Below, piece after piece: positions 57,845-60,616 of a DNA stretch of 60,616 nucleotides. The notes beneath the pieces were generated by a model. That model was given only the letters and a program-made list of their open reading frames with translations. It was not told where the DNA came from and did no database searches. The stretch covers positions 1 to 60,616 of the forward strand of contig NZ_JAFBCW010000016.1 of the NCBI RefSeq assembly GCF_016907915.1. The letters run 5' to 3'. Each line of letters opens with the position of its first letter. Position 1 is the first letter of the stretch. Position numbers and translations under genes: made by a program. This DNA is from Desulforadius tongensis. Lineage in GTDB: Bacteria > Bacillota > Desulfotomaculia > Desulfotomaculales > Desulfohalotomaculaceae.

Positions 57845-58022
57845 TATACTAAAAATGTCGTCGACCCCCGGTAGTGTAATTTTTCCGGGGGATCGACGAC
57901 ATTTATTAATAGCTCCAATGTATTGATTTAACTGGTATGTTGGAAAAACCGAAGATGAAATGCTTGTTTTTGGAATTAGTATTGTGTAAACTAAAGTGCA
58001 GATATTAAGCGCTTTTTAATGG
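57845..58022 (+). promoter_or_regulatory. CRISPR leader 1
   Basis: The 178 bases ahead of array 1 recur almost identically ahead of arrays 2 and 3. They start TATACTAAAAATGTCG, include a ~20-bp hairpin (57853-57904) and end GCGCTTTTTAATGG directly before the first repeat. Confidence 0.85.
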
Positions 58023-58591
58023 GTTTCTAGCCTACCTATGAGGAATTGAAACATGACACTAGTGTTCCTTGCCATAATGGATGGGTAGGTTTCTAGCCTA
58101 CCTATGAGGAATTGAAACAGGTCTAAACCATATTGTTTTAATTCATATTCAAAAACGTTTCTAGCCTACCTATGAGGAATTGAAACTTGAACTTTTGGGG
58201 ACCTTAAACTCAGCTGTATATTTCGTTTCTAGCCTACCTATGAGGAATTGAAACTTCGTGGTGCTTCCCTTAGCGATAACCTCAAATTTAGTTTCTAGCC
58301 TACCTATGAGGAATTGAAACCTGTAGTAGCTAGAGATAGAAACGAGGCTGTAAAATTTGTTTCTAGCCTACCTATGAGGAATTGAAACATAAAAAAATGC
58401 TGGGAAAAAACAAAAAAGAATATCAGTTTCTAGCCTACCTATGAGGAATTGAAACATGGGTCTTACATCGGAATATGACATATTGGAAAAGGTTGGTTTT
58501 TAGCCTACCTATGAGGAATTGAAACCCGAGACCTGCCCGGGATATTTTTTATGATGTTTTAGTTTCTAGCCTACCTATGAGGAATTGTCCT
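58023..58591 (+). CRISPR. CRISPR array 1: 9 repeats, 8 spacers
   Basis: Thirty-base repeats begin GTTTCTAGCC and end GGAATTGAAAC, with TATGAGG in the middle. They start at 58023, 58089, 58157, 58225, 58291, 58359, 58426, 58496 and 58562. Spacers are 36-40 bases. The eighth repeat has C to T at position 5 and the last has lost its final AAAC, so the leader end is on the left. The GAATTGAAAC end is common in clostridial type I-B and III systems; no cas gene is in the window. Confidence 0.98.
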
Positions 58592-58784
58592 TTTCCCGGT
58601 TTAATGGACAGCCGGTAAAGAGTGGATAGTATAAATAATAGAAGATGCTGAAAATGGTGGGGATGCCGGTTACCTGGGAGCACACGGAGTAATTCCGTCA
58701 TCACCGGGCTGTATGAGCCCAGAAATTATAAAAACAAAGAAAAGCGGTTTAACTTATTGTCTAATTTATCAAGGGAAGATCAGA
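58592..58784. other. Trailer of array 1
   Basis: No gene. It contains short segments shared with the region after array 2 (ATAAATAAnnAGA...GTGCTGAAAA-like and ATGCCGGTT) and a hairpin around CACACGGAGTAATTCCG. AACTTATTGTCTAATTTATC just before leader 2 recurs before leader 3. Confidence 0.7.
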
Positions 58785-58962
58785 TATACTAAAAATGTCG
58801 TCGATCCCCGGTAGTGTAATTTTCCCGGGGGATTGACGACATTTATTAATAGCCCCAATGTATTGATTTAACTGGTAAGTTAGAAAAACCTAAGATGAAA
58901 TGCTTGTTTTTGGAAGTAGTATTGTATAAACTAAAATGCAGATATTAAGCGCTTTTTAATGG
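58785..58962 (+). promoter_or_regulatory. CRISPR leader 2
   Basis: A second copy of the 178-base leader, with few changes from leader 1. The hairpin is at 58793-58844; a base change turns one pair into G-T. Confidence 0.85.
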
Positions 58963-59257
58963 GTTTCTAGTCTACCTATGAGGAATTGAAACGTAAAGGA
59001 AGTGATAAATAATCGATAGCAATAAAAGTTTCTAGTCTACCTATGAGGAATTGAAACTCGGGATATGGCTCGTACTTTATGGAGCCGTCCGCGTTTCTAG
59101 TCTACCTATGAGGAATTGAAACCCCAAGTATCAAATACCATGGGCAAGATCGCCCAGTTCCAGTTTCTAGTCTACCTATGAGGAATTGAAACATTACCCC
59201 CTCTTAAAATCCGTTTATAGCCCGTCGGTTTCTAGTCTACCTATGAGGAATTGAAGC
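58963..59257 (+). CRISPR. CRISPR array 2: 5 repeats, 4 spacers
   Basis: All five repeats carry GTTTCTAGTC where array 1 has GTTTCTAGCC, and are otherwise like array 1. They start at 58963, 59028, 59093, 59163 and 59228; the last ends GAAGC instead of GAAAC. Spacers are 35-40 bases. Confidence 0.98.
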
Positions 59258-59678
59258 ATATGATGCTGCGAAGGAATAAAAACGCATGTCAACGGTTAGT
59301 GTACAGCATAAATAACTAGATGTGCTGAAAACGGTGGAGAATGCCGGTTTACCCGGGAAGGCATGGAGGACTTCCATGTTGAGAGGATGTGCCAAGTCCT
59401 CAAGGCTTCCCGGGGTATTATTATGCCTGGTGCAGGGCCGGCAGGGGTATTGAAGCGTTGAGCGTATTATGAGATCAGCAGGCATTAGCCATTTAAAAGG
59501 GCAGGTATAAAGCAGCGGTAAACCCGGGACATACCATACCGGCTGCTGAAAATAAGCTGAGCCGCCGGGTATATTTGAATACTAGAAAGTTTCTATAACC
59601 GAATAAGACTTCATTTATCACTGGACTGTATGAGAAAAGCGCTTAACTTATTGTCTAATTTATCAAGGGAAGATCAGA
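59258..59678. other. Trailer of array 2 with a nested hairpin
   Basis: No credible gene. ACCCGGGAAG (59351-59360) pairs with CTTCCCGGGGT (59406-59416), and inside it GAGGACTT (59366-59373) pairs with AAGTCCTC (59394-59401). The left part is related to the trailer of array 1. Confidence 0.65.
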
Positions 59679-59857
59679 TATACTAAAAAATGTCGTCGAC
59701 CCCCGGTAGTGTAATTTTTCCGGGGGATCGACGACATTTATTAATAGCTCCAATGTATTGATTTAACTGGTATGTTGGAAAAACCGAAGATGAAATGCTT
59801 GTTTTTGGAAGTAGTATTGTATAAACTAAAATGCAGATATTAAGCGCTTTTTAATGG
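59679..59857 (+). promoter_or_regulatory. CRISPR leader 3
   Basis: A third copy of the leader, nearly the same as leader 1, with the hairpin at 59688-59739 and one extra A. Confidence 0.85.
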
Positions 59858-60616
59858 GTTTCTAGCCTACCTATAAGGAATTGAAACGTTCTGCAACTAT
59901 TCTGACTACATCTTGGTATTTATGTTTCTAGCCTACCTATAAGGAATTGAAACTCAATATTCAGGGCCATTTCCTTGCTGGTAACTTCCACAGTTTCTAG
60001 CCTACCTATAAGGAATTGAAACATGTATTGTCTGAGGGATATGCCCAGAATTCTTGCCGTTTCTAGCCTACCTATAAGGAATTGAAACAGGCTATGAAGG
60101 AAACTGATTTGCTGATATGGGACGGTTTCTAGCCTACCTATAAGGAATTGAAACTGTGCATGAGCGCATGCCATAAAGCAATTGCACCGGGAGGGTTTCT
60201 AGCCTACCTATAAGGAATTGAAACACCGCCAATATTGCGAGCTGGTATAATTCCTCATCGTTTCTAGCCTACCTATAAGGAATTGAAACATCTAACATCA
60301 TACTCAATAGCTTTATTTATTTCAGTTTCTAGCCTACCTATAAGGAATTGAAACATAAAAGCTATACCCTTGCGAAAAGCGATGAACCCAAGTTTCTAGC
60401 CTACCTATAAGGAATTGAAACGCTTGCCGGCGGTTTCAAATATAACCTCTAAAACATGTTTCTAACCTACCTATAAGGAATTGAAACCCCTCTGCCTGCA
60501 CTATAAACCATGAACCAAAGGGTTTCTAACCTACCTATAAGGAATTGAAACCCCTCTGCCTGCACTATAAACCATGAACCAAAGGGTTTCTAACCTACCT
60601 ATAAGGAATTGAAACC
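59858..60616 (+). CRISPR. CRISPR array 3: at least 12 repeats, running out of the window
   Basis: Repeats carry CTATAAGG where arrays 1 and 2 have CTATGAGG. They start at 59858, 59924, 59993, 60059, 60125, 60195, 60260, 60325, 60392, 60458, 60522 and 60586. Spacers are 34-40 bases. The last three repeats share a further change, TCTAACC for TCTAGCC. The last two spacers visible (60488-60521 and 60552-60585) are identical. Confidence 0.98.

What the first reader, a model, noticed from the sequence alone, without database searches (positions are those of the whole stretch)
57845..60616. Three tandem CRISPR modules, each with its own leader and its own repeat variant
Each array is preceded by a near-identical ~178-base leader and differs by one diagnostic base: AGCC/TATGAGG in array 1, AGTC in array 2, TATAAGG in array 3. 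Within each array the repeats are almost uniform. Leader, array and part of the trailer seem to have been duplicated as a unit. The repeat carried by each new module was then fixed by copying from its leader-proximal repeat during spacer uptake. This makes the locus a natural record of module duplication and repeat drift, and raises the question whether one adaptation complex serves three leaders.
Basis: partly seen in the sequence, partly recalled or inferred. Interest (0 to 1): 0.75.

Follow-up and report, generated by a model that had tools for sequence, protein, structure and literature searches.

The report
Tandem CRISPR modules with a shared leader
This bacterium has copied a whole CRISPR memory unit (leader plus array) at least seven times, four of them in a row. 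Each copy has since gained its own memories and small repeat changes, and all carry a conserved palindrome that marks the same kind of leader in many distantly related bacteria.

Summary
Three leader-array modules lie at 57846-60616, with leaders 94-98% identical to the first and repeats separated by positions 9 and 18. The contig ends inside array 3. A second contig very probably carries the rest of array 3 and a fourth module, and the genome holds seven such leaders in all. Trailers alternate (T1 like T3, T2 like T4), so a two-module unit was probably duplicated. Leader sites conflict, which points to recombination between modules. Array 4 reads GTTTG, then AGCC, then AGTC from new to old, as expected if changes are carried forward by copying the leader-proximal repeat. 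The cas genes are not to the right. One matching Cas4-Cas1-Cas2 operon lies beside a seventh leader on another contig, and almost no spacers are shared. One adaptation complex serving seven leaders is the likeliest reading, but it is inferred. Other genomes have several such modules whose repeats differ at the same few positions. The most unusual part is a 45-bp dyad element at the far end of each leader. It recurs in about 60 genera or MAGs, travels with this Cas1 family, and lies at four preferred distances from the first repeat. It may already be in a leader-motif catalogue I could not read.

The parts
57846..58022 (+). Leader 1
   Evidence: Six further copies in the genome at 88-98% identity
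57857..57901 (+). 45-bp dyad element (GTCGTCGA...TCGACGAC) at the distal end of leader 1
   Evidence: RNA fold -34 kcal/mol, z -7.8; same element in about 60 genera or MAGs
58023..58587 (+). CRISPR array 1: 8 intact repeats GTTTCTAGCCTACCTATGAGGAATTGAAAC, a truncated last repeat, 8 spacers
58588..58785 (+). Trailer 1
   Evidence: 95% identical over 196 bases to the trailer after array 3 on contig C35
58786..58962 (+). Leader 2
   Evidence: 94% identical to leader 1
58797..58841 (+). 45-bp dyad element of leader 2
58963..59257 (+). CRISPR array 2: 5 repeats GTTTCTAGTCTACCTATGAGGAATTGAAAC, last one ending GAAGC, 4 spacers
59258..59679 (+). Trailer 2, longer, with a 132-base block shared at 96% with the trailer of array 4
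59680..59857 (+). Leader 3; left part shares states with leaders 1 and 4, right part with leader 2
   Evidence: Conflicting informative sites
59692..59736 (+). 45-bp dyad element of leader 3
59858..60616 (+). CRISPR array 3, cut by the contig end: 9 repeats AGCC/TATAAGG then 3 repeats AACC/TATAAGG; very probably continues on contig C35:1-290

Best explanation
A type I-B CRISPR leader-array module was multiplied in this genome by duplication and recombination between the near-identical leaders. One duplication probably copied a two-module unit, giving four modules in a row. One Cas4-Cas1b-Cas2 complex, encoded beside another module on contig C8, inserts new spacers at all of the leaders. Each insertion copies the leader-proximal repeat, so a base change there spreads to all later repeats of that array. 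Each array thereby becomes nearly uniform but different from its sisters, or shows ordered blocks of older and newer repeats. Shown: the modules, trailer alternation, conflicting leader sites, ordered repeat blocks, nearly no spacer sharing, one Cas1 of the matching family. Inferred: the C16-C35 join, the order of events, and that one complex serves all leaders. The 45-bp dyad element is most likely a DNA site used in spacer integration; that too is inferred.
For: Seven leaders, six of them at 88-98% identity to leader 1. Trailer 1 and trailer 3 are 95% identical over 196 bases, trailers 2 and 4 96% over 132 bases. Leader columns 40 and 107 group L1, L3 and L4, while columns 132 and 142 group L2 and L3. 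Array 4 runs 12 GTTTG, 3 GTTTC-AGCC, 1 GTTTT-AGTC, 4 GTTTC-AGTC repeats from leader to end. Of 80 distinct spacers only one pair matches; it has the same start and a 35- versus 36-base length with different flanking repeats, as expected from two separate uptakes. Cas1 is found at two places only. All 26 loci in the multi-genome set with a Cas1 match near such a leader score best with the C8 type at about 55-92% identity, against 26-33% for the C13 type. The same pattern in G040 (same order), Paenibacillus, Maledivibacter and Longirhabdus, with repeat differences confined to positions 4, 5, 9, 13, 18, 22 and 30.
Against: No strain series, so no gain of a spacer was observed. GTTTG occurs in both array 4 and the C8 array although their leaders differ, so a repeat variant arose twice or moved by gene conversion. 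The mosaic of leader 3 rests on few sites. The join C16-C35 is inferred from a shared repeat-spacer unit. The C13 Cas1 has not been shown to be unable to use these leaders.
Confidence: 0.75

Rival explanations
1. The modules are not local duplicates: arrays were gained separately by horizontal transfer, or split by insertions, and only look alike because the leader family is conserved.
For: The leader family is widespread. IS3-like coding remnants (read by eye) lie upstream of the C3 module. Duplication, transfer and splitting are all described origins of multiple arrays (PMC12814883).
Against: Leaders within this genome are 88-98% identical to leader 1, while the best other genome in the class is 76%. 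Trailers are shared in an alternating order. The two congeners held have no exact match to the repeat pattern.
Confidence: 0.12
2. Repeat variants are spread between arrays by recombination or gene conversion, not by stepwise mutation and copying within each array.
For: Leader sites conflict. GTTTG is shared by array 4 and the C8 array, and AGTC by array 2, the C6 array and the old end of array 4.
Against: The leader of array 4 carries none of the C8-specific leader bases. The same positions vary between species and within other genomes, so repeated mutation at tolerant positions is enough. No spacer blocks are shared.
Confidence: 0.3
3. The dyad element of the leader is a transcription terminator that shields the array promoter from upstream transcription, not an integration site.
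For: Strong stem. T-rich octamer after the stem in 45 of 102 distinct elements, against 13% of leader octamers.
Against: More than half lack the T-tract. The total length is 45 bases in 126 of 126 although loop length was left free by several bases, its distance to the first repeat falls in four narrow classes, and it follows one Cas1 family. None of this is needed for a terminator. The simple terminator scan, which allows loops of 3-8 only, does not list it.
Confidence: 0.3

Closest known systems
Multiple CRISPR arrays with similar repeats served by one cas locus (survey PMC12814883)
   Same: Several arrays per genome with nearly the same repeat and leader; duplication named as an origin; arrays with identical repeats inferred to gain spacers at similar rates whatever their distance from cas
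   Different: Here the copies are strictly in tandem with their trailers, and each carries its own fixed repeat variant
Type I-B CRISPR-Cas with Cas8b, Cas7, Cas5, Cas3, Cas4, Cas1b, Cas2
   Same: Operon on C8 beside one of the leaders
   Different: No cas6 in that operon; a Cas6 sits with a second effector operon without cas1, cas2 or cas4, near the C3 module
Upstream leader motifs used with IHF in type I-E and I-F adaptation (from my own knowledge; Santiago-Frangos 2021 not readable here)
   Same: A leader-distal motif at preferred spacing from the first repeat, linked to the adaptation genes
   Different: Sequence, host groups (mainly Bacillota) and subtype differ; no bending protein identified; spacing step measured here about 12 bp

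Membership tests
CRISPR array | Identical short repeats separated by unique spacers of similar length | tested here: met
   30-base repeats, spacers mostly 34-40 bases, one pair matching among 80 distinct spacers
CRISPR array | Leader directly upstream of the first repeat, degenerate repeat at the far end | tested here: met
CRISPR array | Spacers match foreign DNA | tested here: inconclusive
   44 spacers of arrays 1-4 gave no match in 50,697 phage records; plasmids not searched
Type I-B CRISPR-Cas | Cas8b, Cas7, Cas5, Cas3, Cas4, Cas1b, Cas2 operon with matching leader | tested here: met
   C8 operon; Cas1b scores 480 against a cut-off of 304. Cas8b, Cas7 and Cas5 reach general Pfam or subfamily cut-offs but not the subtype-specific NCBIfam ones
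Type I-B CRISPR-Cas | Cas6 in the same operon | tested here: not met
   No Cas6 at C8; Cas6 at C3, C5 and C13
Tandem duplication of leader-array modules | Leader and trailer of the modules homologous over their length | tested here: met
Tandem duplication of leader-array modules | Residual shared spacers at the old end (expected of recent copies, not required) | tested here: not met
   No shared old-end spacers among the tandem arrays, so the duplications are not recent or the arrays turned over
Upstream leader motif for spacer integration | Required for spacer uptake | not testable with these tools
   Needs an uptake assay
Upstream leader motif for spacer integration | Fixed or phased spacing to the first repeat | tested here: met
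   Distances cluster at about 135, 149, 161 and 172 in 62 genera or MAGs; none of 3000 smoothed null samples as strong

The most novel reading that the evidence does not exclude
The leaders of a large family of type I-B arrays in Bacillota and some other phyla share an undescribed 45-bp dyad element of fixed length. It acts as the landing site of a specific Cas4-Cas1b-Cas2 family and must sit at one of four distances from the first repeat, about one DNA turn apart. It would work like the IHF-dependent upstream motif of type I-E and I-F, but in hosts and a subtype where no such mechanism is known to me.
Probability: 0.3. Interest if true: 0.68.

Novelty: new member of a known kind. Interest (0 to 1): 0.5.

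Why it matters
The module family is a natural experiment. Seven leaders of known difference in one cell, with repeat variants that tag the arrays, would let one read from a few strains which leaders gain spacers and how repeats drift. The shared dyad element gives a concrete, testable candidate for how type I-B integrases find their leaders, a point that is open in these bacteria as far as I know. It also offers a marker for orienting arrays and linking distant arrays to their adaptation genes.

Tried and rejected
Cas genes to the right of the cluster: none seen; C35 continues into a coding region read by eye as mfd. Rfam family for the hairpin: only a weak match to a microRNA model below its cut-off. 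Phage targets of the spacers: none; the shared spacer was also absent from the viral contigs. Spread of the hairpin in viral contigs: one match only, so it is not a phage-borne element as a rule. Array 4 as a fusion with the C8 array: rejected because its leader is of the L1 type and no spacers are shared. Stem covariation as proof of an RNA structure: weak; several inner pairs fail in about half of the sequences, and the outer pairs were fixed by my search pattern. Only two diverged copies (G001, G019) show paired changes. My first distance script had an indexing error and was discarded. Exact helical phasing at 10.5 bp: the best fit is about 12 bp (11.6-12.35), so one turn per step is suggested, not shown.

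Full report
WHAT IS THERE. The window end holds three CRISPR modules in the same orientation, each a 177-178 base leader followed by an array. Leaders 2 and 3 are 94% and 98% identical to leader 1. The repeats are 30 bases long and are matched by the Rfam CRISPR-DR2 family. The last three repeats of array 3 in the window are AACC/TATAAGG.

THE WINDOW STOPS AT A CONTIG END. Contig C16 is exactly 60616 bases. It ends in a spacer-repeat unit present at least three times in a row. Contig C35 begins with the same unit, and the AACC/TATAAGG repeat occurs only at these two places. I therefore join them, as inference. C35 then shows the end of array 3, a trailer, a fourth leader, a fourth array and a fourth trailer. 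It then continues into coding sequence that I read by eye as mfd, without a family search. No cas genes were seen to the right.

SEVEN MODULES IN THE GENOME. Leader copies lie on C16 (three), C35, C6, C3 and C8, at 88-98% identity to leader 1. The C8 copy follows a type I-B operon: cas8b, cas7, cas5, cas3, cas4, cas1b, cas2. That operon has no cas6. The C3 copy lies near a second effector operon (cas6, a large protein without a family match, cas7, cas5, cas3) that lacks cas1, cas2 and cas4. A third system on C13 has its own cas6, cas4-cas1 fusion and cas2. Cas1 occurs only on C8 and C13.

HOW THE COPIES AROSE. Trailer 1 and trailer 3 are 95% identical over 196 bases; trailers 2 and 4 share a 132-base block at 96%; trailers 1 and 2 share only shorter pieces. 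So the series reads a, b, a, b, as if a two-module unit had been doubled. Leader sites disagree: columns 40 and 107 group leaders 1, 3 and 4, but columns 132 and 142 group leaders 2 and 3, and column 21 groups 2 and 4. This is the mark of recombination between modules, although the number of sites is small. The C3 module carries trailer-like sequence upstream of its leader, so it probably left from a tandem series.

HOW THE REPEATS DIVERGED. Array 4 reads, from new to old: 12 repeats with GTTTG, 3 with GTTTC-AGCC, 1 with GTTTT-AGTC, 4 with GTTTC-AGTC and a degenerate end. Array 3 ends in an AGTC/TATGAGG repeat after AACC/TATAAGG. Ordered blocks are what copying of the leader-proximal repeat predicts. 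Differences between the first repeats of the modules fall on positions 5, 9 and 18 here. In other multi-module genomes (G040, Paenibacillus NAIST15-1, Maledivibacter, Longirhabdus, Fervidibacillus) they fall on 4, 5, 9, 13, 18, 22 and 30. All but position 13 are among the most variable positions between species. So the same variants can arise again and again, and a shared variant alone does not prove exchange.

WHO SERVES THE LEADERS. Among 80 distinct spacers only one pair matches, between array 3 and the C8 array. The copies have the same start, lengths of 35 and 36, and different flanking repeats, which fits two separate uptakes from one target. Spacers of arrays 1-4 matched no phage record. 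Since the modules share no other spacers, each has filled up on its own. The leader family goes with the C8-type Cas1: in all 26 loci of other genomes with a Cas1 match near such a leader the C8 type scores best, at about 55-92% identity, against 26-33% for the C13 type. One complex serving all seven leaders is the simplest reading; it is not shown.

THE LEADER ELEMENT. Each leader starts with a 45-bp dyad element, GTCGTCGA...TCGACGAC with a conserved TAGYG and A-rich centre. A leader BLAST over the class found it upstream of arrays in eight other genomes. A pattern scan of 84,980 species found it in 101 stretches, mostly Bacillota, with Chloroflexota and Caldatribacterium. 80 of 108 matches had repeated DNA at CRISPR spacing within 700 bases downstream (one of these is a run of N), and 18 of the rest lay too near a stretch end to tell. 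A test that does not depend on the element: seven arrays chosen by repeat alone all carry it, two of them in diverged form, and a congener with a different repeat carries a diverged copy with paired changes in the arms. The length is 45 in 126 of 126 although the loop was left free. The distance to the first repeat clusters at about 135, 149, 161 and 172 bases (measured to the end of GAAA) in 62 genera or MAGs. The best period is 12.0 (bootstrap 11.6-12.35), and none of 3000 smoothed null samples was as strong. On a Cas1 tree the distance class changes at least seven times, so ancestry alone does not easily explain the classes, though the tree is small and half-resolved. I favour a DNA site used by the integrase; a terminator role is possible, as a T-rich tail follows in 45 of 102.

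COMPARED WITH WHAT IS KNOWN. Multiple arrays with the same repeat, duplication as one origin, and similar uptake at such arrays are described (PMC12814883). Upstream motifs with spacing rules are known for type I-E and I-F from my own knowledge; the key papers (Santiago-Frangos 2021; Buyukyoruk 2025) were not held, and the second, by its title and by PMC12814883, catalogues leader motifs across subtypes, so this element may already be listed. I found no text naming it in the papers held. For the modules I file a new member of a known kind. Possible novelty lies in the leader element and is kept as the novel case.

LIMITS. Draft assembly; no strains of the species; the statistics on distances use leaders whose ancestry is only partly controlled; pattern hits fix some bases by construction.

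Noticed in passing
57857-57901, 58797-58841, 59692-59736 and about 100 loci in other genomes: A 45-bp dyad element of fixed length marks the leader-distal end of this leader family in about 60 genera or MAGs and lies at four preferred distances from the first repeat.
   Followed up: yes
L211:4038-11358 (contig C3): A second type I-B-like effector operon with cas6 but without cas1, cas2 or cas4, close to the C3 module, while the C8 operon has the adaptation genes but no cas6. The two may share arrays.
   Followed up: partly
60458-60616 and L046:1-64: The same 64-base repeat-spacer unit occurs at least three times in a row, and the assembly breaks there.
   Followed up: partly
L046:94-128 and L049:16950-16985: The same spacer was found in array 3 and in the C8 array with the same start and a length of 35 versus 36, which suggests two separate uptakes of one target.
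   Followed up: partly
L048, bases 5640-5450 on the minus strand, and L046:2386-2440: Sequence upstream of the C3 leader reads like a remnant of an IS3-type transposase, and a stretch after trailer 4 resembles a group II intron end; both by eye, and Rfam gave no intron match in L046.
   Followed up: no
L192 (Paenibacillus sp. NAIST15-1): Four leader-array modules of the same leader family in tandem within about 3 kb, with first repeats differing at positions 5, 9, 18 and 30.
   Followed up: partly
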